Shown here piece by piece: positions 3,103 through 24,349 of a stretch of DNA of 64,000 nt. Origin of the DNA: Actinomadura mexicana. Lineage in GTDB: Bacteria > Actinomycetota > Actinomycetes > Streptosporangiales > Streptosporangiaceae. Position 1 is the stretch's first letter. The number at the start of each line of letters is the position of its first letter. Location of the stretch: NCBI RefSeq assembly GCF_900188105.1, contig NZ_FZNP01000011.1, positions 186,001 through 250,000 of the forward strand. Reading direction: 5' to 3'. Position numbers and translations under genes: made by a program. The notes beneath the pieces are model-generated. The model saw nothing but the letters and a program-made list of their open reading frames with translations, had not been told where the DNA came from and ran no database searches.

Positions 3103-3166
3103 CCGAGTGCTGTACCCACCGTCTCGACAGGCTCCACGGCGGATAGAATAGATGGAAGGAGAAGTG

Positions 3167-6934: not shown

Positions 6935-7169
6935 TGCTGCTGAAACTGATCAGGCATCGTCGTCCACGGCAAAGGGACATGCGAAGTACATGGCGCTTTT
7001 GAGTCAAGTATGGGCGGTCCGGGCAGTGTGACGCGCTGGTTCTTGATTATTTATCTCGACGGATCTACGCACTGGCCGTCTCGTTTCACAATGCGACGTC
7101 GGCGACTAATGCTCACTCGTCCGCTCGTGCCTCGACGCCTTGTGTGAGGGCCGTAGCGCTCTGTGGAAC

Positions 7170-7945
7170 GCCGTGGTGGGCGCCGATCCGTGACGTTTGC
7201 GAGGTCGCGGTAGCGCTGGGCATCGCCGAGTCGTTCCTGTACCGGTGGCGTTCACGCGATCTCGTCGAGTGAAGACTCAGAGCTCCCAGCGCCGGAGCGG
7301 TGGAGTCGGCAGTCCTGGCCGCGGCCAACCAGCGGATCCGAGAGCCGGAGAACGAGGTCAAGATCCTTCGCAAGGCGGCCGCCGCGGTCGAGGAGGTGGT
7401 GCCCCCAAAACGGCGGTTCGAGCTCGTGACCGAGCTCGCCGGTGAAGGCGTTCCGGTCAGGCAGTCCTGCCTGGCCCTGGGCGTCCTCCGCTCGGGATAC
7501 TCCAACGCCCGGTCCCGGCCGCCCTCGGCGCGAGCGATCAGGCATGCCTGGCTCGCAGACCTGATCGGCACCGTCCACCAGGCCTCACGCCGAACCTACG
7601 GGTCACCGCGCGTCCACGCCGAACTGGTGCAAGCCCACCAGATCACGGTGGGGCGCAACACCGTGGCCATGCTGATGCGGCGCCGCGGCCTGTCCGGCCT
7701 GCCGCTACGGCGCTGAGCCAAGCAGGTCCCGGCATCGACCACCGTCACCGACCTGGTCAAACGCAACGTCCACCGCGACGGCCCGAGCCGGCTGTGGGTC
7801 ATCGACATCATCGAACACCCCACCCGCGAAGGCAAGATCTACTGCTGCGTGGTCATCGACGCCTTCTCCCTGCGGGGCGTCGGCTGGGCCATCGACTCGC
7901 GCCGGCGAAGCGACCTGGCCACCAGCGCCCTGGGGATGGCTCTGG
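7170..7945 (+). mobile_element. IS3-family insertion sequence relic (orfA/orfB, inactivated)
   Basis: The orfA part reads DVCEVAVALGIAESFLYRWRS with a stop at 7270-7272. A shifted frame then continues ANQRIREPENEVKILRKAA and VVPPKRRFELV. The orfB part gives the IS3 signature SRRTYGSPRVHAELV and MLMRRRGLSGLPLRR. It is cut by an in-frame TGA at 7714-7716 and resumes with PSRLWVIDIIEHPTREGK, which carries the first catalytic Asp, to VVIDAFSLRGVGWAID (second Asp region). Homology ends near 7945, so the last catalytic Glu region is missing. No terminal repeats were found. At least two stops, a frame change and a 3' deletion make this a dead element. Confidence 0.85.
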
Positions 7946-9709: not shown

Positions 9710-11959
9710 TCATTCTGCGTCCGCCAGCGGAAGGATGAGGTCGAAGTGGGCGCCGACGTAGACGGGGTGGCCGTCGGTCGCGGAGGCGAGCAGCAACTCG
9801 CCCCCGAACTCGCCGGCGAGCCGCCGGGCCAGGTAGAGCCCCTCCCCGTCGGCTGCCGGGCGGTTGCCCTCCCCGCGCCGGAAGATCAGGTGCTCGCTGC
9901 CGGGGTAATCGACGCCGGGTCCGGTGTCCTGGACGGAGATGATCACGTCCTTCCGGACCGTTCGGGCGGCGAACCGGACGGTTCCCCCGCCCTCGCCCAG
10001 GGCGTCGAACGCGTTGCGGAGCAGTTCGCGCAGTGTGGCCCGCAGCGGTAGATCGCTCGCGGCGACGAGGATGCCGGATCCGACCTCCACCTCGATCATC
10101 ACCTTGGAGTTGAGGGACGCGGCCTCGGCGGCCAACCTCTTGACGAGCTCGCCGATGTCGGTGACGCCGTGGGGGTCGGCGGCGAGCGCGGCGTTGGTCT
10201 CCTCGCGCCATGTTCCCATCGGGTCGGGTGCGGCCTCCCCGGCCTCACTCAGCCGGTCGAGGGCCGCGGTGAGCAGGTCGTCGGACTGCTCGGCCAGCAG
10301 GATCAGTGCCCCGCACTCGCGAAATTGCAGGCTCGTGCCGGTTCGCTCGACGAGCGGGACCGTGGAGAGTTCGGCGAGCCCCGCCGGGAAGAACCGTTCC
10401 AGCTCCGAGTCGTCGCAGGCCAGCGCCATTTCCAGGACGAGGTCCTCCTCGTTCACCGGGTCGCCGGGCGGCGCGGCGGCCAGCAACGCCCAGAAGGCCG
10501 CCTCCCCGGCGGCCGAACCGGCGAGCGGTTCCAGGAGGGCACTCGCAACGGCCGCCGCCAACTGGGGCCGCAACACGTTGTCCATTGAGGGTGTGCGCAT
10601 CCGGGACTCAGCGAGGAACTCCAGGTAGAGGTGCACGAGCGCCGGTTCGAGTGCGGTCTCGAAGGCCAGCGCCGCGGTGAGCGCGAGATCGCCGAGCCCG
10701 GTCAGGTCGACGATCCAGGAAAGGCGCGCCCACCGCTCGCCGGGCGCGCCGAGCCGCTCGGCGAGTTCGGCCGGTGATCCACCGGTGAACGCGGCCAGCG
10801 GCCACCACTCACCGACGGTGCGCAGCAGCACGGCGGACCGCTTCGAGCGCAGCCGGCCGAGCCCGATCAGATCGTCAAGGGTGATGAGGGCGCAGTCGGC
10901 ACGGCCGGCGCGGGCCTCTGGCCCCAGCGCCGGCCCGACGGCGACGTGCGGGCCCAGCTTCTGCAGCTCGGGAAGGGTGCGCCGCTCGGGCTCGCCGACG
11001 AACAGGTCCACCGTGCCCGTGGGCCGGAAGATCTCGGTCCCCGGTTCGCCGAACAGCCCGTTGAGGGTCGTGAGGTAGCCGCCCTCGACCGGGTGCACCG
11101 TCCGTGCCCCGGGCTCCAGGCCGAGGAACCTTTCGAGCGCGTCGGCGAAGGCCGCGGCCGACTCGTTTCCTCCCTCGCGGAGCCGGTCGTAGGCGAGGAA
11201 CAGTTCGTTCTCGGGGCTGCCGGGTTGGGAGGCCCAGGACTGGAAGGCCGGGAGAGCGTCGCCGGCCGCGGTCAGGTGCCACCGCAGCAGGGTCTCGGCG
11301 GACTCCTTGCCCGCCCAGTGCGGCAGCCGCGGCACGGTGGCAGGCCCCGAGAGCCGGTCCTCGGGATGGGCGAGAAGCTGCTCCACTGACTGCCATTGGC
11401 CGTTCTCGACCAGTGCGGAGCACGCCGCCGCCCAGTCTCCGTCCGCCGTTCCGAAAGCGTCGATCCGCTTGCGGAGGTCGCTTCGCTTCGCCTCGACCCG
11501 CTCGCCGAGATCCTGGGCGAGCTCGGCCAGCCGGCGCTCGGCGTCGGGCCAGGAACGGTCGGCGAGCGCGACGAGCGCCTGCCGATCGTAGGTGAGGTCG
11601 AGGCCCGCGCGCTCGGCGGAGCCGGCCAGCTCGTCCAGGCGTTGCAGGAGCTGCTGGCGGCGTCCGGCGCGGGCCGATTCCACCAGTTTGGCCGGCGACG
11701 CGAGCGCTTGGGACTTCAGCGTGTCGGACGCGTCGAGCATCACCGCTTCGGCGACGTGGAACCGGCCCGCCTTGACGATCGCCTCGAACGCCCCGCGCTC
11801 GCCGAGTCCTCGGGCGAGTCCCATGAGCGCGGCCCTGGCCAGTTCCGCGTGCTCCGGAGGATCGGCGTCGCCGGCGAGCCTCTCCATGAGGTCGGGCAGC
11901 CGGAACCGGAGGGGCCATCGCTCCAGCAGCCGCACCAGCGGATCCGATCGTTCGGTCAC
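9710..11959 (-). CDS. Large protein with C-terminal GHKL (HATPase_c) domain, last gene of the candidate defence operon
   Basis: 749 residues from GTG 11959, which overlaps the stop of the upstream gene by 4 nt (GTGA). The final ~150 residues are a GHKL ATP-binding domain: N box LRELLRNAFDALG (about 640), G1 VQDTGPGVD (about 676) and G2-like EGLYLARRLAGEFGG (about 707). The first ~580 residues are mostly helical, contain no transmembrane segment, no PAS/HAMP and no phospho-acceptor His box, and match nothing I know. It is therefore not an ordinary sensor kinase. GHKL domains also drive MORC, Hsp90, MutL and gyrase-type machines, some of them in defence loci. Strict coupling to the PLD-like gene suggests they act in one complex. 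An upstream in-frame extension is rejected because it would overlap that gene by more than 260 nt. Confidence 0.75.
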   Translation of the reverse strand: MTERSDPLVRLLERWPLRFRLPDLMERLAGDADPPEHAELARAALMGLARGLGERGAFEAIVKAGRFHVAEAVMLDASDTLKSQALASPAKLVESARAGRRQQLLQRLDELAGSAERAGLDLTYDRQALVALADRSWPDAERRLAELAQDLGERVEAKRSDLRKRIDAFGTADGDWAAACSALVENGQWQSVEQLLAHPEDRLSGPATVPRLPHWAGKESAETLLRWHLTAAGDALPAFQSWASQPGSPENELFLAYDRLREGGNESAAAFADALERFLGLEPGARTVHPVEGGYLTTLNGLFGEPGTEIFRPTGTVDLFVGEPERRTLPELQKLGPHVAVGPALGPEARAGRADCALITLDDLIGLGRLRSKRSAVLLRTVGEWWPLAAFTGGSPAELAERLGAPGERWARLSWIVDLTGLGDLALTAALAFETALEPALVHLYLEFLAESRMRTPSMDNVLRPQLAAAVASALLEPLAGSAAGEAAFWALLAAAPPGDPVNEEDLVLEMALACDDSELERFFPAGLAELSTVPLVERTGTSLQFRECGALILLAEQSDDLLTAALDRLSEAGEAAPDPMGTWREETNAALAADPHGVTDIGELVKRLAAEAASLNSKVMIEVEVGSGILVAASDLPLRATLRELLRNAFDALGEGGGTVRFAARTVRKDVIISVQDTGPGVDYPGSEHLIFRRGEGNRPAADGEGLYLARRLAGEFGGELLLASATDGHPVYVGAHFDLILPLADAE

Positions 11960-14900
11960 GAGAGCTCCTTCGCCCACTCGGACAAGGGGCCGAGCTTCTC
12001 CAGCAGGGCGATGAACGGCATGTTGTACGGATGCGGCATCGCCTCGGCCTCCGTGAACAGATCGTCCCAGCGGCGGGCCATCTCGCGGCCGAACCTCCGG
12101 CTGGCGTCGAGGACCCGTTCGCGGTCGACGGCATGCCCGGCGGCCGGTTCCGCCGGACACAGGTTCCTGGCCGTACTGACGATGGCCTCCGTCTTCTTCA
12201 GGAAGCCGCGCTGCCGCCCCCACTGCACCGAGTCCATTCCCGCCTCGCGGACCAGCCCGTCCAGGAACTCGATCACCCGGACCGGGAGGGCGCCGCGCAG
12301 TTCAGGCCGGAGCCCCGGGGTGTCGCAGGCGGCACGGATCCGGGTGAACAGCCCGTCGGGGGCGAAGAGCCGGTCATGGATCTCCCGACCCGAGACGAAG
12401 GAGAAGCGCTGCCGCAGCCGGCCCAGCTGGTCGATCGCCGCCGCCAGTTCGCGCCAGGTCTCCTCGGCCGCGAGCCGGTCGTTGAGGTCGGTCAACTCCA
12501 TGCTGATCACCGACAGCGGCAGGGCCGCGCCGACCCGGTCGTGGAAGCCCAGCGCCTCGTCGCCGAGCTCCCGCCACGCGCACGGGAGCACCTGGGCGGT
12601 TTCGCGCAGCATGTAGTCGCCCTCGTCGCTGCCCCACAGCAGCAACTCGGCGAGTGCCGAGAGCGCGCCGGTCTGGCCGGCCGGCCCCGGCGCATTGGCG
12701 AGCTCGGTGACCTCGTCGAAGATCAAGGCTCCGAGCGGGCCGACCTCCAGTGCCGCGGCCGCGATGCAGGCGTGGGCGCGGGGCCCTGCGGGCAGGAGCG
12801 TTCCGGCCAGGGCGGCCTCGACGAACGACCGGCGACCCCAGGCATCGTCGGCCAGCCACTCGGCCCATCGTGCCCGCGGCCCGGGCGGGGCCCACGCCTC
12901 CCGGGAGAGGAGGACCGCGACCCCCTTGCGCATCTCGGCAGCCGGGATCTCTGCCCGTTCCCAGCGGTCGAGGACCTCCCACGGGTCGGCGAGCCGCGCG
13001 AACCCGTCCACGACCACCGCGGCGAAGCCGCCGGGGGCGCGGGCGCCGCGGGCCTCGATCAGCAACGGCAGCGCGGTCGCGGCGGCGGCGGGCTGTTGCC
13101 GGACCTCGGCCGGTTCGGTGCGCGCCGGCGCGGTGGGAAGGGCGATGGCGGCCGCGACGCTGTCGGCGAAGACCGCGCTGTGGATCTTCAGCCCGACCTG
13201 GGTGCGCCGGCTCCGGCCGATGCCCTCCCCCTCGGCCAGCGGCGAGAAGCACCCCATCAGGACCTGGTCGTCGGACAGGACCGCGCGAATCCCGGCCCGC
13301 CCATGCCGGACGTGGATCGGGCCGGCACCGAGCCGGTCGAAGGCCTCGTCCAGCTTCGCCCCCGCGGGGCCGGGATGGAGGAGGCAGGTCAGGACCCCGG
13401 CCTCCGCACGTGCGGTCAGGACACGGGCGAGCCTGTCGTTGGCCACCCGCGGGTCGATCCGGTCGTCGGTGACCGCCAGCCGCCGCGCGGCGTCGGAGAC
13501 CGCATCGGACACGACCTTGCGGTGCGCGTTGTCGCGGACCAGTTCCACGCTCGGCACCGCGTTGGTCATCCGTCGCGCCACATCCACCAGCGCCGCGTGA
13601 TGCTCTGTCCAGCTCTCGGCCCACAGCCGCACGGTGGAGGCGTCGGCGCCCTCCGCGTCCCACTCGGGCAGGAGCGGAGCAGAGGTCTCCACCGGCTCGG
13701 CGACGTCACTGCGGGGGGTGTCGCTCAGCAGGTCGATACGCTGCCCCTTCCCCCAGGTCGGGTAGCTGTCCCGAGCCCAGACCAGCAGATCGGTGACGCA
13801 TCGGGGCGTCGCCGGGCCGTCCGCGGCCGGCTCGACCAGAACGGCGATACGGGACGAGTCGCGTTCGTGACCGCGCGCCAGCGGGCCGGTGGACCCCACC
13901 AGTGCCCGCAGGTTGTCCTGGATCACCACGCAGGCGTTCGTCTGCGCGCTGAGCGTGTCGATCGAGACCTGCGCCGGGTACCTGGCCAGCATCTCGCTCA
14001 GGGCCGCGTCGACCCGCTGCGGCAACGTCTCTTCCGGCTGGCGGCCCCAGAGCAGCGCGAGCTGAACGCCCCGCCGGAGCGCCTCGTCGAGGACGGGGAG
14101 GAATCGGTGCAGGACCTCGTATTCGATCTGGGGACTGGAAATCACTATCTGCCGCTCGGCCCGTTTGATCAGGTCCGTTGTGGCCCACAGCTGACCGGAC
14201 GAGCGTTCCACGATGTGCGCCGAGGCGCGGGAGTCGGCCAGCTCGTCCAGCCGCTCCTCCAGGGCGAACGCCAGTTCCTGGAGCTCCTCCTGGTCAGCGG
14301 CGATCTCACTTGCGGGCGACCGGGAAAGACCGGCGACCTTGCGTTCCAGCCGCGCCAGCTGCGCGCCCAGTCCCACCGGCTCCGGCGGGGTGGGGCCGGC
14401 GATCTTGGTCAGCGTCCGGGTCAGGACGTGCTCGGGATACCGCTCGACGAAGTCGGCCAGGTGATCGGTCAACCGCCTGCTCGCTCGCGCGCCCCACTTG
14501 TGCCCCTCCCGCACGGTGAAGGCCATGCGGCCGGTGGCCGGCTCGGTGTGCGCGCTCACCCTCGTCCGGAGATAGCGCAGCTCCGTCGGCGGACGCAGCA
14601 GCGGGTTGCCGAAGCTCACGTCGCGGACGTTGGACCGTTTCCCGGCCGCGCGCTCGCGCTCCAACACTCGCCGGACCGCGACGAGAAGGTCCCCATGCGG
14701 CAGGTCCGACGCATCGGTGTCGCTCTGCAGCGGAACGCCGAGCAGCCCTTCGTGGATGCTCGGAACACCGTCGTCCTCCGCGAAGAACTGGCCTGATATC
14801 GGTTCGAGGAGGAATTTCTGCCAGGTCCGCTTGTCGGACTCCAGCCTCTTCTCCTCGTCGACGAGCGCGGCCTGGGCGCTCTCGGTCAGCTCGAGGAGGC

Positions 14901-15132
14901 TGGAGTCGAAATCGATGCTCACGTGCCCGGCGCTCCACAGGTCCCGCACGACGTCCAGGACGATCCGGTCGGGCAGCACGAAGAGCTCGCCCAGCTCCTC
15001 GATGGTGTCGATGCCGCCGCTGATCGCCCGGGCCACCAGTTCGGTGAGCGTCGTCATGCCGCGCTCCGGCCCGAGCATGACTTGCAGTGTGACGAAGCGG
15101 CAGGGGAGGGCGAGCGTGATTATCCGGTCCAC
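11956..15132 (-). CDS. Winged-helix protein with two degenerate phospholipase-D half-sites (MkoB-like position)
   Basis: 1058 residues from GTG 15132, with GGAGGAG about 4 nt upstream; it overlaps the helicase gene stop by 13 nt. The N-terminal part (about 25-90) looks like a winged helix (TIEELGELFVLPDRIVLDVV). A coiled-coil stretch lies near 270-305. Then comes a PLD-type fold: QLWATTDLIKRAERQIVISS (about 315), a first half-site NACVVIQD followed by GSTG, and a second half-site GIRAVLSD followed by MGCF. In the HxKx4D consensus the first site has N399/C401/D406 and the second G614/R616/D621. Both catalytic His and the first Lys are thus lost and the second Lys is Arg. In Mokosh type I the partner of the helicase is a PLD protein; here it may be a structural or nucleic-acid-binding pseudo-enzyme. 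The C-terminal 400 residues are unassigned. Confidence 0.75.
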   Translation of the reverse strand: MDRIITLALPCRFVTLQVMLGPERGMTTLTELVARAISGGIDTIEELGELFVLPDRIVLDVVRDLWSAGHVSIDFDSSLLELTESAQAALVDEEKRLESDKRTWQKFLLEPISGQFFAEDDGVPSIHEGLLGVPLQSDTDASDLPHGDLLVAVRRVLERERAAGKRSNVRDVSFGNPLLRPPTELRYLRTRVSAHTEPATGRMAFTVREGHKWGARASRRLTDHLADFVERYPEHVLTRTLTKIAGPTPPEPVGLGAQLARLERKVAGLSRSPASEIAADQEELQELAFALEERLDELADSRASAHIVERSSGQLWATTDLIKRAERQIVISSPQIEYEVLHRFLPVLDEALRRGVQLALLWGRQPEETLPQRVDAALSEMLARYPAQVSIDTLSAQTNACVVIQDNLRALVGSTGPLARGHERDSSRIAVLVEPAADGPATPRCVTDLLVWARDSYPTWGKGQRIDLLSDTPRSDVAEPVETSAPLLPEWDAEGADASTVRLWAESWTEHHAALVDVARRMTNAVPSVELVRDNAHRKVVSDAVSDAARRLAVTDDRIDPRVANDRLARVLTARAEAGVLTCLLHPGPAGAKLDEAFDRLGAGPIHVRHGRAGIRAVLSDDQVLMGCFSPLAEGEGIGRSRRTQVGLKIHSAVFADSVAAAIALPTAPARTEPAEVRQQPAAAATALPLLIEARGARAPGGFAAVVVDGFARLADPWEVLDRWERAEIPAAEMRKGVAVLLSREAWAPPGPRARWAEWLADDAWGRRSFVEAALAGTLLPAGPRAHACIAAAALEVGPLGALIFDEVTELANAPGPAGQTGALSALAELLLWGSDEGDYMLRETAQVLPCAWRELGDEALGFHDRVGAALPLSVISMELTDLNDRLAAEETWRELAAAIDQLGRLRQRFSFVSGREIHDRLFAPDGLFTRIRAACDTPGLRPELRGALPVRVIEFLDGLVREAGMDSVQWGRQRGFLKKTEAIVSTARNLCPAEPAAGHAVDRERVLDASRRFGREMARRWDDLFTEAEAMPHPYNMPFIALLEKLGPLSEWAKELS

Positions 15133-18100
15133 GGCTCCTCCAACGCGGTGGCCTTGACGACCCTGCCGTAGAGGTTGACCGTCTCGGCGACGTTCTGCCA
15201 GGACTCCCCGCCGTGCCGGCCGAACAGGTCAAGGTTGCCCACCAAGACGAGCAGGCGCTTGGCCCGGGACAGCAGAACGTTGGCGACCTCGTCCCTTCCC
15301 ACGTGACCGACGTTGCTCTGGACGGTGTCGCCGAAGGGGGTCGAGCGGACCAGGGACACGATGACGCGATCGGCCTCTCTCCCTTGGAAGGAGTGGACCG
15401 TGTGCACCCGGTCCTTGAGCAGTGGCCGCTTCGCGAGCCGCAGGCGCTGCATCCGGTACGGGGTGAGCACGACAAGGCCGCCCTTGTCCTCTGGAGGCTG
15501 TGCCGACGGCAGGGGCGCGGGCGTCATCAGGGCGACCAGGCGTTCGACGAGCTCGACCTCGCCTTCGTTGAACCAGCACCGCGTGTCGCGGAAGCCGGCG
15601 CAGCCGGCGGTGTCGATCCAGACCAGCGGGGCCCCGGCGATGCACTCCGGCACGGTCACCCCGTGGTCCTTGTCGGTCTCCGGCCGCTGGGTGTCGAGGA
15701 AGCTCAGCGAGAGGCCGGTGCCGTCCACTTTCTCCGGGACGACGGGGTAGAACGTCCGGCCGACCGGCTCCGCGATGGTCGAGTGCATGCGGAACTGGAG
15801 CTTCAGCCGATCCAGTGGGACCGCTGGGGTGTCGGAGCCGGAGTCGTCCCGCCGGGTCTCGAAGATCGAGCCGAAGAGCCTGAGCGCCTTCATGCGCTCC
15901 TTCCGCAGCTTGTAGTGCCGCATGATACGAGGATCGCGGTTGCCGTCGAGGCTCTCCAGGAACTGCTCCAGCTCCAGCTCGCGGTGGGCGCCGAGCTGAC
16001 GGTGGTCGCCGATCAGCGACCACCGGAAGCCCAGGACCAATGGCACGATCAGCTCGGTGGGCCATGCCTTGGCGGCCTCCTCCACGATGATCCAGTCGAA
16101 GACGTCGCTGTGCCCGTCCTCGCCGTGCCCGAGCATGGCGGCCTGGGAGGTGGTGGCCAGGATGACGCTCGCGCCGGCGTTGATCCGGTCGGCCAGCTCG
16201 ATCTGGTTCGTGCGGACCAGTCCAAGCCAGCGTTCGGCGATCTCGCTATGGACGCCGTTCAGCGGAGTGGGCAGGCGGGACGGGGGATTCTTCTGGAACC
16301 TCCGCCGGGTGTCCTCATCGAGCTGATCGGGGTGGAGCAGCCAGGTCAGCGTGTCGGTTATCTTCGTCGTCAGCTGCTCGGTCAGTTCGACCAGCGTGTG
16401 CTTCTTGACGGCGTCCACGGCGATCTTCTCGGGGTTCGACGTCTCCCGCAGGATCAGGGTCGTGTCCGGGAGGATCTGGATGAGGTTCTTGGCCAAATGG
16501 TCGAGCGCGTAGTTCGACTGGGCACTCACCAGGACCCGCGCACCTCTCTCATGCTCCAGGAACCGGCGGATCGCGACGGCGGCCACGAGGGTCTTGCCCG
16601 TTCCCGGTGGGCCTTGGAGAGCGTAGAAGGGCTGCAGCGAGAGCATGTTCTGGATCACGGATGGAGCTTCGCCCTGCAGCTTCTTGTGGAGTCCGGGCTT
16701 GATCTCATCGCTGAACTCCCACCGTCCTCGTCCGAGGTCGATCGCCCAGGGAGTGCGCAGCATCCGCAACAGGCCGGATTGGAACTTCAGGAGGCTCACC
16801 GCTCGCTCTTGGCGAAGAAGGCTGACGAAGCTGCCCCCGTCGTCGGAGGGCCGGATCCACCCGGAATCCGGGACGGCGACGACCTTGTCGCGGGGACGGA
16901 CGACAGCCGTAAGGTCGTCCTTGCGCCGTACGAAGTCGACCACCATCGAGCTGCGCGAGAAGCGTGGTCCGGACGTTTGCGCCTCCTCGATCTGGAAAGC
17001 GTCCTCCTTGTCGGTCTCCATTTCTTCGAGGAACAGGCCCAGGGGCGGTCGCCGCCGCTTTTCGCTGGTGTAGGCGGACAGTAAGGGGTTGTCGTGTTTC
17101 CACGTGTCGTCGCGGGCCTTGTCGAACTGGATGGTGGCGTCGCCCAGGGCGCCCGATGCGCCGTCGACGCGTTTGAAGGCGTACTTGCGGGCGTCCAGTT
17201 CCGCACGCTGGTAGGAGAGGAGGAAGTCGATCGACTCGGCGAAGTCCCGGTCCTCGTCGCGCTGGCGCTCGGCCGCCTCCAGCTCTTCGGTCAGCGGGCT
17301 CCAGCTCGGCCGCCCGCTGCGTTCGGCGGTGAGGTCCTGCCCTTTTCGGAACGCCACCAGCTTGAGCGGGCTGACCTTCTTGAACACTTTTGAGTTGACC
17401 AGGTTCTTCGCGCGCGAGTGCTCGCTCAGGTACTTGATGATAAGAGTGTCCTTGTGGGTCTCACCTCGCCCTCTGGCTCGCTGGTACTCGTCGTAGTAGA
17501 AGGCGCAGAACCATACGGCGCGTGCTCCGACGAGAACCCATCTGGCCTCCCGGAGGCGTTGCTCGTCGTCGATGGCGTAGCCGAGGGCGCCGTCGGGGGA
17601 GTAGACCAGCTTTGCGTCTCCCAGTTCCTTGGTAAGGAAATCTCTGAGCTCGTCCCTGCCGATCGGATCGGCCGGACTGTGCGAAAGCCATTTTCGTTCC
17701 TGGTAGAGCGGGGTGACCGATTCTTTCGGCATGAACGCGACCAGCCGGGGCGTCTCATCGGTCTCCTTCTCCCAGTAGGCGCGAATACCCTGCCAGTGCC
17801 TGTCCAGGTGCGAGAGAACCTGGAACGCGGTGTCGCGCACCTGGTTCGAGTGGCGCATCATGCGTAGCAGCACCTGGATCAATGGTCTTGGCAGGTGGTT
17901 GTGCTGCCTCCCGAGGTGTCGCCGCATCTCGGCGTGGAGTTCGTTGAGTGCGGCGGCCTTGGCGGGCCCGTCGGGCGCCTCCTCCACTTTCTCGTACGCC
18001 TCCGGCAGCACCTCCGGAATAGCGCCGCAGAACCACTCCCAGCCGAGGACGCCCAAGCCGAACACGTCGGTGGTGAAATACTCGCGGCGAACTCCGGGCC

Positions 18101-18782
18101 GATTGTTGAAGAGCAGCTCGTGGGTTTCCGGGGCCAGAAAGGCCAGGTGCCGGCTCAGTTCGACGTTCGGCGGCGGCACCAGGTACAGTTCGCGGATCAC
18201 ACTCCAATGGCGGGACGAGTCGCCGATCGGTCCTCGCCGGACCAGGTTCCCGATGAGCGTGCTCATCTCGAACCGGCTGATGACGATCTCGTCGTTCTCC
18301 CCCTCGCGGAGCGCGCCCAGGCTCAGATTGCGGTGCATCATGCGGGCGTCGTTGATTCTGGACAGCCCGTCGATCAGCATGGTGAGCCGGTCGAGCGCCT
18401 CCAGGGGATCCGCTGCGGCGAGCTCGATCCATTTTCCGGCGTCGAGAGGGCGGCCGGGAATCCTGGTGAGGGTGAACGCGATTCTCTCCGCCGCCTCGAA
18501 GCTGCCCGTGACGATCTCGGGTAACGCTGGATGGCGCAGTGCCTGGAAGCGCAGCAGGCTCCGGACCTCCTGCTCCCAGAGCTGACCCGCGAAACCGCGG
18601 ATCTGGTGGAAGATGGTCAGCTCGAAGGTGTCGGTCTGGTCTCCGGGCCGTTCGAGTTCCGCGCGCGACAGAATGCCCGGCACGACGTACTCCGGACCGG
18701 AACGGAGCTCGTACGGGCCGTGGATGGCCGTCGGCCGGCAGAACAGGCGCTGCACCAGATCGGTGAGCTCGCTAAGGTCCAT
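15120..18782 (-). CDS. Upf1/DNA2-like SF1 helicase with N-terminal kinase-like domain (MkoA-like)
   Basis: 1220 residues from ATG 18782 (GAGAGGTGGGG just upstream). About residues 40-330 form a protein-kinase-like fold: MHRNLSLGAL in the catalytic-loop place (HRD to HRN, near 150), no DFG, but a kept FLAPETHE and TTDVFGLGVLGWEWFCG. It is probably a pseudokinase. About 700-1200 is a COG1112-type SF1 helicase with motif I QGPPGTGKT (near 725), Ia VLVSAQSNYALDHL, II VEEAAKAWP (near 897), III GDHRQLG, IV QFRMHSTIAEPV (near 994), V HTVHSFQGREADRVIVSLVRS (near 1129) and VI LLSRAKRLLVLVGN. Helicase residues look intact, so ATP-driven RNA or DNA translocation is expected. Kinase-like domain plus SF1 helicase followed by a PLD-fold gene is the Mokosh type I layout. 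It lies 52 bp after the caspase gene. Confidence 0.88.
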   Translation of the reverse strand: MDLSELTDLVQRLFCRPTAIHGPYELRSGPEYVVPGILSRAELERPGDQTDTFELTIFHQIRGFAGQLWEQEVRSLLRFQALRHPALPEIVTGSFEAAERIAFTLTRIPGRPLDAGKWIELAAADPLEALDRLTMLIDGLSRINDARMMHRNLSLGALREGENDEIVISRFEMSTLIGNLVRRGPIGDSSRHWSVIRELYLVPPPNVELSRHLAFLAPETHELLFNNRPGVRREYFTTDVFGLGVLGWEWFCGAIPEVLPEAYEKVEEAPDGPAKAAALNELHAEMRRHLGRQHNHLPRPLIQVLLRMMRHSNQVRDTAFQVLSHLDRHWQGIRAYWEKETDETPRLVAFMPKESVTPLYQERKWLSHSPADPIGRDELRDFLTKELGDAKLVYSPDGALGYAIDDEQRLREARWVLVGARAVWFCAFYYDEYQRARGRGETHKDTLIIKYLSEHSRAKNLVNSKVFKKVSPLKLVAFRKGQDLTAERSGRPSWSPLTEELEAAERQRDEDRDFAESIDFLLSYQRAELDARKYAFKRVDGASGALGDATIQFDKARDDTWKHDNPLLSAYTSEKRRRPPLGLFLEEMETDKEDAFQIEEAQTSGPRFSRSSMVVDFVRRKDDLTAVVRPRDKVVAVPDSGWIRPSDDGGSFVSLLRQERAVSLLKFQSGLLRMLRTPWAIDLGRGRWEFSDEIKPGLHKKLQGEAPSVIQNMLSLQPFYALQGPPGTGKTLVAAVAIRRFLEHERGARVLVSAQSNYALDHLAKNLIQILPDTTLILRETSNPEKIAVDAVKKHTLVELTEQLTTKITDTLTWLLHPDQLDEDTRRRFQKNPPSRLPTPLNGVHSEIAERWLGLVRTNQIELADRINAGASVILATTSQAAMLGHGEDGHSDVFDWIIVEEAAKAWPTELIVPLVLGFRWSLIGDHRQLGAHRELELEQFLESLDGNRDPRIMRHYKLRKERMKALRLFGSIFETRRDDSGSDTPAVPLDRLKLQFRMHSTIAEPVGRTFYPVVPEKVDGTGLSLSFLDTQRPETDKDHGVTVPECIAGAPLVWIDTAGCAGFRDTRCWFNEGEVELVERLVALMTPAPLPSAQPPEDKGGLVVLTPYRMQRLRLAKRPLLKDRVHTVHSFQGREADRVIVSLVRSTPFGDTVQSNVGHVGRDEVANVLLSRAKRLLVLVGNLDLFGRHGGESWQNVAETVNLYGRVVKATALEEPWTG

Positions 18783-18834: not shown

Positions 18835-21800
18835 TCAGTGTCCGCGTATGGCCAGGTTGCCGAGCGGCCGGAGGGCGAAGAGACCTTCGTCGGTACCGAC
18901 GATGAGGTCCTCACCGTTCACGGCCAGCGCTTCGCAGCGGAGACCGATCGGGATCCGGTGCAGCAGCCTCGCCGCGACCGGGTCCCAGAAGCAGATCGCG
19001 CGGTCATGGCCGGTGGTCGCCAGGAGAGGCCGCCGACCCGGTCCCTGGTACGCCGCGATGGCCACGATCGAGTCCTCGTGGCCGACGAGCGGTGTGCCCC
19101 AAGGACCTCCGGTGAACCGCCAGAACCGCACCTCGGGCGCGTGGGCCGTGGACGCCAGGACGGGGGAGCCGTCGGCGAGGCGAAACGCGGCGACGGCCCG
19201 CGGGATCCCGTGCTCGCCGGCGTCGATCTCGTGCTCCAGTGCGAGATTCTTCGTATCCCAGATCCGCAGGCGCCTTTCCAGGTCGCCGGTCAGCAGCAGC
19301 GCGCCGCCGGGAGCGTCGAGCGCGCCGATCGCCCGGACGGCGTTGACGCGCAGGCGGTTGACGGCGGTCCCGGCGGCGGGGTTCCACAACCGGACCTCTG
19401 CGGCGTTCGCATCGGCCAGGGCCAGCAGCGACGAGCCGTCCGAAGTGCCGAACGCCGTGCAGGCCGTCACGGTCCCCGCCGCCTCCAGCCGGGCCGGTGA
19501 ACCCTCGTCGCCGGCCTCCCAGAGATGCAGGGCCCCTTCCGAGCAGAACGCGAGGCACCCGCCGTTGAGAGCGGCGATCGCCCCGGTCCGTTCCCCGACG
19601 GCCCCCGCGGCGGGCGCGGCCGGGCTCCCCACCGTGGGGTACCAGATCTTCACGGTCTCATCGGTCCCGCAGGTCGCGAGATAGTCGGCGCCGTCCGCAG
19701 CGGGGAAGGCGGCAAGGGCCCTCACGGGGCCGCGGTGCCCGGTGAGCGGCTCCCGGAGTTGCCTGCCCAGGTGCGGGTCCCAGAGCGACACCGCCCCGGA
19801 GGCGTGCCCGCCGGCCAGGTACCGGCGCCCTGCCGTACCGCTGAAGACCGTGAGCGCACGGACCGCGCCGAGGCGCGACGTCATCCGCCGCAGCAGCAGG
19901 CCCTCCTCGGGGTCCCACACGCAGACGGCTCCTTCCTCTCCGCCGGTGGCGAGGAGGCCGTCGAGCATGGTGATCGACTCGATGCCGCCCGTGTTCGCGG
20001 CGGGCAGGCTGCGGTCGTACCGCGCGGTGCCCAGGTTCCATATGTGGACGCTTCCGTCGTGCCCAGCGCCGGCCAGCAGGGGAGCGTCGTCGCGGGACCG
20101 GAAGACCGCCAGTCCCGTGACGCCGCCCTGGGGGCACGGCAGCGTCCGTAACCGCGCCGGGGACGTGGGGGACGAGGCCGGATCGATGAGGTGGACGTCC
20201 CCGTCGATGGTGGCGAGTGCGAGGGAGGCCGGGCCGGTCGGGGTGCCTGCGAGGTACAAGTGGTGCTGCCCGTCAGGCAGCGGGATCTCCTGCCGCGATC
20301 GAACGTCCCACATGCGCAGTGTCGGTCCCCCATGGCCCGCCTTCTGCTCGGTGGAGGTGACGAGCAGGGGGCGCCCGCCGACGCCCTCAAGAGCGGTGAC
20401 GGTGAGGACCGGCCCCCGGTGCCCGTCGAGCAGGAGGCCGGCCGGCAGGCCGGTGGCCGGGTCCCAGAGACGTACGGTGGAGTCGCCGCCGCCCGTGGCG
20501 AGCAGGTGCGTCCCGCCGGCCCCCGGCACGACGGCGATTCCCGTGACCGGGCCGCGATGGCCCGCCAGGGTCAGGTGCGGGGGATGGGATCGCAACCGCG
20601 ACCAGCGGATCTCCCAGGCCGCGGCGTCCTGTGACGCCGCCTCGGGGGGCCCGCCGGTCTGGGCGCTTCCCAGCTGGCGCAGCCCCGGCCGGTCACCGGG
20701 TGTGGCACGTTCCGCCAGGTGCGCGGTGTGCAGGGTACCGAGGACACCGGCGGGAAGCCGGCTCAGCCCGGCGCCGGCGCGCATGGCGTCGGACGCGACG
20801 GCCCGCGGGTCGAGGAGGTCGAGCACGTGCGGGCGGGCGGCGAGCAGGTCCCATTCGCCTATCGCGGCAAGATGGCCGGACAGGTGCCGGACGAGGTACG
20901 GGTTCAGCGGGCCCGGCCGTTCGCCGTCGGCCGCCGCGGTGGCCAGCTCGAACAGGGCCAACCCGACCTCCCGCCGGCGCTCCCGGTCGCCCTGCTCGGC
21001 GAAGGACTCCTGGAACAGCCGGTGCGCCAGCCGGTACACGCCCTGACCGTCGGCGGCGTCGAGCATGATGTACGGACCGGCCGCCTTCAGCACGGCGGCC
21101 ACGTCGCGGTCGTCGAGCGCCGCCGCGCCCAGCGCGGTGGCGGCCCGAGCCCAGATGCGGTCGGCGCGTGGCAGGCCGCGGCCCTGGGCGGCCGACAGGG
21201 CGGCCAATGCCTGCCGGGTGGCCGGTACTTCCCGTTCCAGGCGAGCGAGCGCGGTACGGAACAGGGCCCGGCGGTCGGAGCCGAGGAGCGCCGCGCGCTC
21301 AGCCGCCCGGTCCGGTGCGAGCAGCCCGGGGTCGGCGAGTATCTCGTGGACGGCCAGGGAGGCGTCGAAGAACTCGCGCTCGTCCGCGGTGACCAGCCGG
21401 ACGACGTCGGCGACGGCCTCATCGAAGGCAGGGGAGGGCTGCCCGAGCGGAGCCAGGCTCAGCCGGACGAACTCCGCGATGTCTTCGGGGACGCGCTCGA
21501 TCCACGTGACCTGGGTGTTCCGGCCGAGTCTGTCGAGTAGACCGGTGCCGTCCGGGTTCGCGGGATCCGCGCTTGGCCGGGTGCCAAGGACGATCCGGAC
21601 GCCCGGCAGCTCAGCCAGCCGCCGGAACAGGTCCGCCATGGCCGTCGGCTCTTGCGCCTCGTCCAGTGCGTCGGCGAGGACGGTGAGACCGTTGCCCTCC
21701 CGGGACGCCAGCGTTTCGACCAGCTGGTCGGTCAGCTGACTCGGCGACAGCGCGGCCGCGGGCGCCTCCGTCCCGAACGCTTGCGCCAGCGAGGTGGCGA

Positions 21801-22890
21801 GAGCGTCGATGGTGGAGCCGGTCAGGTGCAGTGAGAGATCGAACGCGGGAACGGGGTCCGGCGCCCAGGGGACGACCTCGAGCTCGGCGACGAGGTCCGC
21901 CAGCTCGGGGGTGCTGTGGAGGAGCACGTTGCCGAGGACGGCCGACTTGCCGGACCCGGGCCTCCCGGTGACCGCGAGCAGGCCGTTGCGGCGGCCGTCC
22001 AGCCAGGAGGTGATGGCCGAGCGCTCGTCCCGGCGGCCGACGAAGTTCCAGGCGAGCTCGCCGGTGAGGGTCCCGGCGGCTTTGCGCGCGAAGTGCCCTC
22101 GTTCGTGCTCGGGGCGTCGTTCGAGCAGTTCGGTGAGCCGTTCGTAGACGTCCATCGAAGCCGTGATGGGTTCAGTGACCTTGGGTGTGCGGGAGATGGG
22201 GCGGACCCCCCGGATGTCGAGATCGTGGACGCGGCCGAGGTCGGGTTGGAGGCCGTCGTGGATTCGGCCGAGCAGATCGTGCAGTCGGATCTCGGTGTGG
22301 TTGGCGAAGCCGTCGAGTACGTCAGCGAGGACGCGGCGGAACGTCGCGAGGTAGCCGCGGCCCTGGTCCCGGCCGGACGCGATCAGGGAGACGCCCGTCC
22401 TGGTGCGCTTGTCGAGGAGCTCGTTGCTGAGGCGATCCAGGAACATCTTGGCGCCGCACGCCTCGACGACGATCAGGGTCCAGTCGGGGTCGTCTCCCCG
22501 ATTGAGAAGATGGGTACTGACATACTCGGCCAGTTCGCCCGGCCGGTACCACTTGACCGGGTTCTGGCCAGGGATGGCGAGGGCCGCGTCGGTCCGGTTG
22601 GACCGGCCGTGTCCCAGCCACAGCAGGACGCTCCGTTTGCTCGATGAAGCCCGCGCCCATTCGCTGAGCCGGGTGTGGACCGCGTTGAGGTGGCGCCCGT
22701 CCTCCGGCGCCCACGGGACCGCCGTGCCGCCGAACTCGGCCAGCAGGTCCCCGATGGCCGCGGCCTCGGACGTGCAGTCGATCTTCCCGTGCTCCGTGCA
22801 GGTGTCGCCCGAGAGGCAGGTGTCGAAGCCCTCGCACGTGTCGAAGGGGAGAGGGACGATGTCGAAGCCGGCGGCGTCTCGTGCACCCAC
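18835..22890 (-). CDS. Caspase-like peptidase - STAND NTPase - WD40 protein
   Basis: 1351 residues from GTG 22890, 4 bp after the lipase gene stop; no strong ribosome site, so coupling is likely. Residues 1-215 are a caspase-fold (C14) domain with catalytic dyad H94 (LLWLGHGRSN) and C145 (LIVVEACGAKMF). About 270-560 is a STAND/NACHT-type NTPase: NFVGRRDERSAI entry, Walker A GRPGSGKS (about 306-313) and Walker B VLADALDEA (about 403). A helical ARC/winged-helix-like linker follows. From about 770 to the end there are 13 recognisable WD40 blades (LLATGGGDSTVRLWDP, LAGAGHDGSVHIWNL, YLATCGTDETVKIWYP, LLATTGHDRAICFWDP and others), fitting two propellers. STAND proteins of this type oligomerise when a ligand meets the repeats and switch on the N-terminal protease. 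Partners and substrate are unknown. Confidence 0.88.
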   Translation of the reverse strand: MGARDAAGFDIVPLPFDTCEGFDTCLSGDTCTEHGKIDCTSEAAAIGDLLAEFGGTAVPWAPEDGRHLNAVHTRLSEWARASSSKRSVLLWLGHGRSNRTDAALAIPGQNPVKWYRPGELAEYVSTHLLNRGDDPDWTLIVVEACGAKMFLDRLSNELLDKRTRTGVSLIASGRDQGRGYLATFRRVLADVLDGFANHTEIRLHDLLGRIHDGLQPDLGRVHDLDIRGVRPISRTPKVTEPITASMDVYERLTELLERRPEHERGHFARKAAGTLTGELAWNFVGRRDERSAITSWLDGRRNGLLAVTGRPGSGKSAVLGNVLLHSTPELADLVAELEVVPWAPDPVPAFDLSLHLTGSTIDALATSLAQAFGTEAPAAALSPSQLTDQLVETLASREGNGLTVLADALDEAQEPTAMADLFRRLAELPGVRIVLGTRPSADPANPDGTGLLDRLGRNTQVTWIERVPEDIAEFVRLSLAPLGQPSPAFDEAVADVVRLVTADEREFFDASLAVHEILADPGLLAPDRAAERAALLGSDRRALFRTALARLEREVPATRQALAALSAAQGRGLPRADRIWARAATALGAAALDDRDVAAVLKAAGPYIMLDAADGQGVYRLAHRLFQESFAEQGDRERRREVGLALFELATAAADGERPGPLNPYLVRHLSGHLAAIGEWDLLAARPHVLDLLDPRAVASDAMRAGAGLSRLPAGVLGTLHTAHLAERATPGDRPGLRQLGSAQTGGPPEAASQDAAAWEIRWSRLRSHPPHLTLAGHRGPVTGIAVVPGAGGTHLLATGGGDSTVRLWDPATGLPAGLLLDGHRGPVLTVTALEGVGGRPLLVTSTEQKAGHGGPTLRMWDVRSRQEIPLPDGQHHLYLAGTPTGPASLALATIDGDVHLIDPASSPTSPARLRTLPCPQGGVTGLAVFRSRDDAPLLAGAGHDGSVHIWNLGTARYDRSLPAANTGGIESITMLDGLLATGGEEGAVCVWDPEEGLLLRRMTSRLGAVRALTVFSGTAGRRYLAGGHASGAVSLWDPHLGRQLREPLTGHRGPVRALAAFPAADGADYLATCGTDETVKIWYPTVGSPAAPAAGAVGERTGAIAALNGGCLAFCSEGALHLWEAGDEGSPARLEAAGTVTACTAFGTSDGSSLLALADANAAEVRLWNPAAGTAVNRLRVNAVRAIGALDAPGGALLLTGDLERRLRIWDTKNLALEHEIDAGEHGIPRAVAAFRLADGSPVLASTAHAPEVRFWRFTGGPWGTPLVGHEDSIVAIAAYQGPGRRPLLATTGHDRAICFWDPVAARLLHRIPIGLRCEALAVNGEDLIVGTDEGLFALRPLGNLAIRGH

Positions 22891-22894
22891 GTGC

Positions 22895-24349
22895 TCAGGC
22901 CGCCGATGCCGGTGGGACCGCGAGGACGAGCCTGGTGACGGGATCGACGCCCGCCGCCACGGCCACTCGGTACAGTCCGGCGTCATGGACCGTGGCCGTC
23001 CCGGCGACGGTCTCCGCGTCACCCGTCCGCAGGAGCCGTGGCGTGTCGACCGGCGGCCTCCTCTCGTGCCGGGCGTCCTCGACGGTGCAGGTGACCGCGA
23101 GCGGGTCCTGCACCGAGTCGACGGAGATCTCGAAGGGCTCGCCTACCGTCACGAGGTCGGGAACGCGCACGCGCACGCCCGTTCCGTCGAGCGCCGAACC
23201 CCGTGGGATCTCCTCCAGGACGCCGCGGACGATGTCCAGAGCCGAACCGGTGGCGGCCAGCGCGCCGTGGTCCTGGACGATCGGGACGGCTTTGCGGCCT
23301 GGCGGGGTGGCCGAGTAGCGGAAGACGGTGCCGTCGCCGGTGTGGTCCACGGGAACCGGACGGCCGTCTTCGCCGCGGTGGACGCGGTCGGCGCCGTCCC
23401 GGCGGAAGCCGTGGAAGAGCGCTTCCACCGTCCCGTTGCGCAGCCGCAGCGACTGTGCGGTCTCCTGCCCATATCCGACCACCGCGGTGTGCTCGGGCAG
23501 TGCCGCGGCGTCCAGGTGCCGGTGGAAAACCGCCGACCGCTCGGCGAGGTCGGGATCGGCGCCCAGCGCGGCCAGGTCGCCCCGGCTCAGCGCCACGACG
23601 TCGTCATCGGTGACCAGGCATCGGTAGGTGGGCAGCAGGTCGTGCAGCCCGGGAAGGGTCCTGGCCAACTCCTGCATGTGCTTCTTGTCGAGCCGGACGG
23701 GCAGGCCGCGCCCCGCGTTGAGTATGACCGTCGCCTTCACCGCGCCCTCGAACGGTGTGCCGAGCGTCACCGACGCCCTGACCTGCGCGGCGAGGTCCGG
23801 ACGCCGCGCGCACATCGACGCTGCCACGAGCCCGCCCATCGAGTGCGCCACCAGGACGACCCGGGCGTCGCCCTCGTCCGGAGCGCTCCGCCGCGCCGCC
23901 ATCTGAGCGGGGTGCTCCCGCCATCGTTCAAGGTGCCGTGACAGACGTTCTGCGAGCAACCCGGCGTTGAACTCGACCGAGAGCCGCCAGTCGTAGTCGA
24001 AGGGCAGCACCGCGTCCGGATGCACCACACACGCGCGGATCTCCCGCATCAGGTTCGAGTACGGTTCAAGTCCCAGCGAGGGCGCCCATTCCGGCGTGGA
24101 CAGCAGTCCGTCCGGCCTGATCCTCCCGACCTTCCCGTCCCGCTCGTCCTCCGTGACGGCGAGCGTCGCCAGATCTCGTCCGTCCCGCCAGCGCGCTGTG
24201 AGCCGGGCAATCTCCAGGACACCCCACAGTCGTCGCCCGGTGGCGTCCTCCACGAGGTTGCTCCCCATGACCCCTGGGAGCACCACGACCGCGTCCCGCG
24301 TTGCGTGCCGCCGTGCCGCCGATGACTGCGCAAGCCGGTCTTCCCCCAT
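22895..24349 (-). CDS. LCAT-like alpha/beta-hydrolase (lipase/acyltransferase), first gene of the candidate defence operon
   Basis: 484 residues from ATG 24349. It begins VVVLPGVMGSNLVED, the oxyanion strand typical of lecithin:cholesterol acyltransferase-like and PGAP1-like hydrolases. The nucleophile elbow is VLVAHSMGGLVAAS (Ser near 169). LGTPFEGAVKA follows, then DHTGDGTVFRYSA (catalytic Asp candidate, near 345) and IVQDHGALAATGS (His near 370). The last ~90 residues form a small beta-sandwich-like domain (VRVRVPDLVTVGEPFEISV). No signal peptide or membrane helix, so it should stay in the cytoplasm. Next to a caspase-STAND gene, a lipase is a plausible membrane-attacking effector or protease target; this is inference. 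The region before the ATG has no good ribosome site, so translation may be leaderless or start elsewhere. Confidence 0.8.
   Translation of the reverse strand: MGEDRLAQSSAARRHATRDAVVVLPGVMGSNLVEDATGRRLWGVLEIARLTARWRDGRDLATLAVTEDERDGKVGRIRPDGLLSTPEWAPSLGLEPYSNLMREIRACVVHPDAVLPFDYDWRLSVEFNAGLLAERLSRHLERWREHPAQMAARRSAPDEGDARVVLVAHSMGGLVAASMCARRPDLAAQVRASVTLGTPFEGAVKATVILNAGRGLPVRLDKKHMQELARTLPGLHDLLPTYRCLVTDDDVVALSRGDLAALGADPDLAERSAVFHRHLDAAALPEHTAVVGYGQETAQSLRLRNGTVEALFHGFRRDGADRVHRGEDGRPVPVDHTGDGTVFRYSATPPGRKAVPIVQDHGALAATGSALDIVRGVLEEIPRGSALDGTGVRVRVPDLVTVGEPFEISVDSVQDPLAVTCTVEDARHERRPPVDTPRLLRTGDAETVAGTATVHDAGLYRVAVAAGVDPVTRLVLAVPPASAA

What the first reader, a model, noticed from the sequence alone, without database searches (positions are those of the whole stretch)
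11956..18782. Mokosh type I-like core whose two accessory catalytic sites both look dead
The helicase motifs are intact. The kinase-like domain has HRN instead of HRD and no DFG, and the PLD-fold partner has N399/C401 and G614/R616 where HxK is expected at both half-sites. If real, this is a Mokosh variant working without PLD catalysis or phosphorylation, which would make the helicase ATPase and the added GHKL protein the likely active parts.
Basis: partly seen in the sequence, partly recalled or inferred. Interest (0 to 1): 0.75.

Follow-up and report, generated by a model that had tools for sequence, protein, structure and literature searches.

The report
Mokosh variant with two dead enzymes
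A bacterial gene cluster related to the anti-virus system Mokosh has lost the catalytic residues of both its kinase and its nuclease, and its three closest relatives found here share with it an adjoining caspase-like protein and a lipase-like protein, which suggests that it may have swapped cutting nucleic acid for killing the infected cell.

Summary
In detail: window MkoA (18782-15120) and MkoB (15132-11956) match PADLOC's MkoA and MkoB profiles, and both accessory sites lack catalytic residues. The dead kinase is not special to this locus: all 17 operons found of a 'long' MkoA type are pseudokinases (HR[N/S/C/G/L], invariant RFE for DFG, no beta-3 Lys), against intact kinases in 12 of 12 short-type relatives. 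The dead PLD is separate: 9 of 17 long-type MkoB keep both HxK, 7 (window included) lost both, 1 is half lost. In two PLD-dead pairs of relatives the dead domains are under purifying selection: pseudoenzymes, not decay. The GHKL protein belongs to the long type (14 of 17), mostly with an H-box and a convergent receiver-like gene. The window's sub-clade lacks H-box and receiver gene, is PLD-dead, and in 4 of 4 members (four family codes) has two upstream genes with intact catalytic residues: an LCAT-like hydrolase and a caspase-like/STAND/WD40 protein. Best reading: a Mokosh-derived sensor rewired to a protease/lipase output. Motifs and synteny are shown; the mechanism is inferred; no activity was tested.

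The parts
22895..24349 (-). LCAT/PGAP1-like alpha/beta hydrolase, 484 aa, AHSMGG nucleophile elbow; candidate lipase effector
   Evidence: Pfam LCAT 6.2e-10; 41-42% identity, same position in L164, L165, L166; Ser and a downstream His conserved 4 of 4
18835..22890 (-). caspase-like (GHG...EACG) / STAND NTPase / WD40 protein; candidate protease effector and amplifier. Start at GTG 22890 inferred
   Evidence: Pfam AAA_16, NPHP3_N, WD40; 33-36% identity and synteny in L164-L166, in L166 over residues 127-1035 only; His, Cys and Walker A conserved 4 of 4; the caspase-like label rests on motifs, recalled, no profile hit
15120..18782 (-). MkoA: pseudokinase plus SF1 (UPF1/SMUBP2-like) helicase, 1220 aa
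   Evidence: PADLOC PDLC03920 E=5.1e-245; AAA_11 and AAA_12; the A1 profile hits SMUBP-2 at 1.2e-38 and GCN2 kinase at 2e-7
18267..18335 (-). dead kinase catalytic core: HRN (18327-18335) and RFE (18267-18275) in place of HRD and DFG
11956..15132 (-). MkoB: N-terminal wHTH-like region, two PLD halves, C-terminal extension; 1058 aa from GTG 15132
   Evidence: PADLOC PDLC03922 E=3.5e-121; PLDc_2 in 5 of 8 members of A2, not in the window; weak Foldseek hits to PLD2, Zucchini, NucT, none at E 0.001 or better
13930..13938 (-). first PLD half-site: N399-A400-C401 where 9 of 17 long-type proteins have HxK
13285..13293 (-). second PLD half-site: G614-I615-R616 where 9 of 17 long-type proteins have HxK; Lys is Arg in all 8 non-intact members
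9710..11959 (-). third gene, GHKL ATPase protein (749 aa from GTG 11959, overlapping the MkoB stop); N box, G1, G2 present; no aligned H-box
   Evidence: Pfam HATPase_c 6.4e-9; family alignment; junction

Best explanation
This is a Mokosh-derived five-gene system. The SF1 helicase of MkoA senses or remodels foreign (probably RNA-containing) nucleic acid. Its pseudokinase and the pseudo-PLD MkoB serve as docking and nucleic-acid-binding platforms without catalysis, and the GHKL protein gives an ATP-gated conformational switch. Nuclease output has been lost; the output is passed to the co-encoded caspase-like/STAND/WD40 protein and the LCAT-like hydrolase, so that detection leads to proteolysis and membrane damage (abortive infection) instead of transcript cleavage. 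Shown: domain composition, loss of catalytic residues, intact motifs in helicase, GHKL, caspase-like and hydrolase parts, conserved synteny, purifying selection in relatives. Inferred: complex formation, ligand, order of events, anti-phage role.
For: Pseudokinase in 17 of 17 long-type MkoA, intact kinase in 12 of 12 short-type. PLD HxK lost in 7 of 17, half lost in 1, intact in 9. Dead domains constrained: dN/dS 0.19-0.43 for the PLD halves of two PLD-dead pairs (L164/L165, L072/L073) and 0.12-0.26 for their pseudokinases, no higher than in three PLD-intact pairs. LCAT plus caspase-like/STAND/WD40 directly upstream in 4 of 4 members of the window sub-clade (window, L164, L165, L166; four family codes; sub-clade support 100/99) and 0 of 12 other long-type loci with upstream sequence (Fisher p=0.0005 if loci were independent). 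Catalytic residues of both added proteins conserved 4 of 4. The same sub-clade lacks the receiver-like gene and the aligned H-box seen in the 10 other GHKL-bearing loci, consistent with a changed output. The pair also occurs without MkoA (8 loci), so it is a separable module that could be recruited.
Against: No activity was tested. The four loci are related, so 4 of 4 may be a single acquisition kept by inheritance. The pair occurs without MkoA in 8 other loci, so it may work by itself. The other PLD-lost branch (L072, L073, L077 and half-lost L084) has no such pair, so PLD loss does not require it. The 52-nt gap between the WD40 gene and MkoA is compatible with one operon but does not prove it. 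dN/dS was not computed for the window proteins themselves.
Confidence: 0.45

Rival explanations
1. MkoA, MkoB and GHKL act alone as a catalytically minimal roadblock: the helicase loads on foreign nucleic acid and GHKL closes as a clamp, blocking replication or translation without cleavage. The upstream pair is incidental.
For: Helicase and GHKL motifs intact. The second PLD-lost branch keeps helicase and GHKL with no LCAT/caspase pair. Precedent: DISARM DrmAB is proposed to block phage DNA physically, and its PLD protein DrmC is dispensable (PMC9142583, passages).
Against: Does not explain the conserved upstream pair in 4 of 4 nor why GHKL is missing in 3 of 17 long-type loci.
Confidence: 0.22
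2. Two independent defence modules lie side by side: an LCAT/caspase-like/STAND/WD40 module and a pseudo-Mokosh module, kept together only as an island.
For: LCAT-like genes beside STAND genes occur without MkoA in 8 other loci of the order.
Against: Same order and orientation in genomes with four different family codes at only 41-45% MkoA identity to the window, which I judge more than chance island neighbours would keep.
Confidence: 0.2
3. Cryptic catalysis: MkoB recruits another PLD-family nuclease as partner, or uses unusual residues, so nuclease output persists.
For: PLD proteins with one HKD can act as dimers (Nuc; PMC6008594, passages), and short-type MkoB has a single HxK.
Against: Both His are lost in the window; the only HxK is off-site; the substitutions at site 1 vary among the lost members (NxC, ExC, DxC, AxS, NxT), which does not suggest a new common active site.
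Confidence: 0.08
4. A decaying relic with no function.
For: Two active sites are dead.
Against: Open frames and overlapping genes, dN/dS far below 1 in related pairs, invariant RFE in 17 of 17.
Confidence: 0.05

Closest known systems
Mokosh type I (MkoA + MkoB; PADLOC PDLC03920/PDLC03922)
   Same: Same two-gene core; profile matches along nearly the whole MkoA and residues 2-658 of the 1033-aa MkoB that was submitted.
   Different: Kinase and PLD sites dead, motif II EEAA, MkoB with two PLD halves and a C-terminal extension, third GHKL gene, two upstream effector-like genes.
DISARM DrmAB(C)
   Same: Helicase-centred defence whose PLD nuclease is dispensable (PMC9142583, passages).
   Different: DUF1998 partner DrmB; no kinase-like or GHKL part in the passages seen.
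FAM83 pseudo-PLD proteins
   Same: PLD-like domain without HKD catalysis that anchors a kinase, CK1 (PMC6008594, passages).
   Different: Vertebrate, one pseudo-HKD per chain, no helicase.
STAND/WD40 caspase systems (APAF-1 type) and conflict systems of multicellular bacteria
   Same: WD40 sensing, STAND assembly and caspase output are described for APAF-1, and kinase domains with disrupted catalytic residues for actinobacterial conflict systems (PMC7159879, passages).
   Different: LCAT, GHKL, PLD and UPF1 occur 0 times in that text; here the pair is syntenic with a pseudo-Mokosh core.

Membership tests
Mokosh type I | MkoA: N-terminal kinase-fold domain plus SF1 helicase, matching the family profile | tested here: met
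   PDLC03920 E=5.1e-245, residues 57-1212; Foldseek of the low-confidence model lists only kinases in its 50 rows
Mokosh type I | MkoB: PLD-family protein encoded next to MkoA | tested here: met
   PDLC03922 E=3.5e-121; overlapping gene; PLDc_2 in 5 of 8 members of A2
Mokosh type I | catalytic kinase residues (K, HRD, DFG) | tested here: not met
   0 of 17 long-type including the window; short type 12 of 12 with K and HRD, DFG in 11 and DFA in 1. Whether catalysis is part of the definition is not stated in any source read here
Mokosh type I | PLD HxK residues | tested here: not met
   Window 0 of 2 half-sites; 9 of 17 long-type have both; 9 of 12 short-type have their single HxK
Mokosh type I | anti-phage activity | not testable with these tools
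   bench assay needed
Two-component system (GHKL protein with receiver) | GHKL ATPase plus phospho-accepting His plus receiver partner | tested here: not met
   GHKL present, H-box and receiver-like gene not found in the window; all three in 10 of 17 long-type loci. The receiver call rests on weak Pfam hits below cut-off (4 of 8 proteins, best E 0.0075) and motifs
Caspase-like/STAND/WD40 effector | His/Cys dyad, Walker A, WD40 repeats | tested here: met
   WD40 and AAA_16 profiles; His, Cys, Walker A by alignment of four proteins; no caspase profile hit; protease activity untested

The most novel reading that the evidence does not exclude
A nucleic-acid-sensing helicase system (Mokosh) was converted by stepwise enzyme death into a pure sensor scaffold and wired to an apoptosome-like caspase/STAND/WD40 protein and a lipase: an effector swap from nuclease to cell-suicide output within one defence family.
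Probability: 0.35. Interest if true: 0.82.

Novelty: new variant of a known kind. Interest (0 to 1): 0.62.

Why it matters
It shows a defence family in which kinase and nuclease catalysis were lost separately while the scaffold stayed under selection. That makes testable whether Mokosh enzymes are really the effectors or whether the helicase complex is mainly a sensor whose output can be exchanged. It also means that annotation by profile (MkoA/MkoB) does not predict the mechanism.

Tried and rejected
A shifted active site was looked for and not found. Decay was rejected on dN/dS of related pairs. A single PLD loss in the long type is marginal: holding the 8 lost/half-lost rows as one clade costs 6.88 lnL, AU p=0.048, because PLD-intact L085 (a long branch) falls among them; the tree needs at least 3 changes of state, counting the short-type loss. 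An association of GHKL with PLD loss was tested and is not significant (8 of 8 against 6 of 9, p=0.21). tblastn of MkoB in plasmids gave nothing; MkoA gave partial matches in 167 records, none covering 80% of it. The AlphaFold models are poor (mean pLDDT 52 for MkoA 1-640; 44 for MkoB): weak support for folds, no use for placing residues. The MkoB model also matched non-PLD chains (MITD1, TrmBL2 and others) at similar E-values, and the A2 profile also hit a de novo designed protein at E=0.0079. The name PLuB (NCBIfam hit) led to no relevant paper among the 10 listed of 26.

Rows dropped and limits: 50 of 297 genomes passed 1e-60, but only the 17 places at E below 1e-200 were counted; the others start at profile position 453 or later. 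Of those 80, L084 and L085 entered the 17; L090, L129 and L147 entered the tree; ten more were read for motifs only and the rest only scanned by profile. L080-L083 were fetched and left out of the motif counts. Short-type L168 and L169 are identical in the tree alignment. The profiles for the third gene were built from 12 (N-terminal part) and 10 (GHKL) of the loci that they then found, so only the other hits are independent.
Full report
Identity. The window lies in an unnamed 8.79-Mb genome. Genes at 18782-15120 and 15132-11956 match PADLOC MkoA (E=5.1e-245) and MkoB (E=3.5e-121). In the window proteins Pfam sees only helicase/AAA families in MkoA and nothing above cut-off in MkoB, so the kinase and PLD labels had to be tested through relatives.

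Relatives. PDLC03920 and PDLC03922 were searched in 297 genomes of the order, PDLC03920 also in 65 of the genus, 394 of the class and 396 of the phylum; the draws overlap, and genus and phylum gave no locus that was not already known. One capped genome-contig scan was run. This gave 17 operons of a 'long' type, the window included (12 order, 3 class, 2 genome contigs), and 12 'short-type' pairs (5 order, 7 class). In a tree of the region after the kinase (32 rows) the long type plus L090 is one side of a branch with support 100/100; the root is not inferred.

Kinase. All 17 long-type MkoA lack the beta-3 Lys (Thr in the window), have HR followed by N, S, C, G or L, and RFE instead of DFG; all 12 short-type keep K and HRD, with DFG in 11 and DFA in 1. 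The fold is kinase: Pfam Pkinase in 11 of 12 members of A1 at E up to 0.1, the window being the miss; the A1 profile finds GCN2 (2e-7), RIPK1 and the pseudokinase MLKL (7.5e-5); Foldseek of the weak model lists only kinases in its 50 rows, best E 1.4e-6 but query TM-scores of 0.20-0.28.

PLD. Nine of 17 long-type MkoB keep HxK at both half-sites; seven, the window among them, lost both; L084 keeps one His. At the second half-site Lys is Arg in all 8 non-intact proteins. Short-type MkoB has one HxK, intact in 9 of 12, so loss has happened there too. The fold is PLD: PLDc_2 in 5 of 8 members of A2, the A2 profile finds human PLD2 at E=2.4e-4, and the poor model gives PLD2, PLD1, Zucchini, NucT and BfiI at E 0.004-0.12 among some non-PLD hits, none at 0.001 or better. 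The strongest argument is the alignment of the window with PLD-intact members of its own clade.

Not decay. dN/dS for PLD halves is 0.19-0.43 in two PLD-dead pairs and 0.19-0.46 in three intact pairs; for pseudokinases 0.12-0.38 over the five pairs. dS is above 1 in some comparisons, so values are rough, and the window protein itself was not in any pair.

GHKL and its history. The third gene's N-terminal part is found by profile in 16 of 17 loci (L085 has a positional 526-aa frame without a hit) and the GHKL domain in 14 of 17, missing in L064, L068 and L085. No third-gene match was listed for the 12 short-type loci (L070 ends just after MkoB). The third gene is fused to MkoB in L064 and L074. 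Ten of the 14 have an H-box-like His and a convergent gene with winged-helix-like and receiver-like parts (Pfam support weak). In the window and L164-L166 no receiver-like gene was found and no His aligns; L164 has a His four columns away where L165 has Gln.

Upstream pair. Window P0005 (LCAT-like) and P0004 (caspase-like/STAND/WD40) have syntenic homologues in L164, L165 and L166 and in none of the other 28 loci searched, 12 of them long-type with upstream sequence; L085 has almost no upstream sequence and cannot tell. The four form a sub-clade (100/99), carry four family codes and are all PLD-dead. Catalytic residues of both proteins are conserved. Among 297 genomes, 9 have P0005 homologues at 1e-25; the 8 besides the window have a gene similar to P0004 nearby and no MkoA in the 11-19 kb read. 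In three of these (L185-L187) only the STAND part matched, and the caspase-like part was covered only in L183 and L184, so the module is variable.

Reading. The order of events that I find most likely is: pseudokinase first, at the base of the long type; PLD loss later, perhaps twice; in the window's line also loss of H-box and receiver gene and gain of the pair. One paper states that Mokosh degrades viral transcripts (PMC11291487, passages); its source I could not read. This line cannot do that with MkoB by known PLD chemistry, and the acquired pair is the most economical effector. Helicase roadblock action alone remains possible.

Literature. Searches for Mokosh, MkoA and MkoB (4 of 4, 40 of 41 and 10 of 30 papers listed) and for GHKL, pseudokinase and LCAT/STAND/caspase combinations showed, in the titles, abstract openings and passages seen, no paper on pseudoenzyme Mokosh, a GHKL third gene or this five-gene set. 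The original Mokosh paper is not held. No whole paper was read.

Noticed in passing
window 15120-18782 (motif II, residues near 901): Helicase motif II is EEAA in all 17 long-type MkoA instead of the DEAS of the short type, so the first acidic residue is Glu throughout the clade.
   Followed up: partly
L065, L066, L067, L069, L072, L073, L074, L077, L078, L084 downstream of the third gene: A convergent gene with winged-helix-like and receiver-like parts accompanies GHKL proteins that have an H-box: a possible two-component branch of Mokosh.
   Followed up: partly
L071, L075, L076 MkoB: Short-type Mokosh with intact kinase but degenerate single HxK (HPH, GTN, NPN): a separate loss of PLD residues.
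   Followed up: no
window 3152-6934 (+): Protein with a nitrilase-like N-terminus (recalled motif) and a TraD/HerA-like ATPase C-terminus, near ORFs that look like IS3 transposase remnants at 7113-7716 (recalled).
   Followed up: no
L183-L190: LCAT-like hydrolase beside a STAND gene, in five of eight with WD40 similarity, without MkoA; possibly an undescribed defence module.
   Followed up: partly
L085: Long-type operon on a contig labelled Hyphomicrobiales MAG; PLD intact; could be mis-binned actinobacterial DNA or transfer.
   Followed up: no
L141 (Citrobacter sp.): 1654-aa MkoA of another type with two kinase-like regions (HRDI and HGDI motifs) and a 475-aa MkoB whose HAK lacks the usual spacing to Asp.
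   Followed up: no
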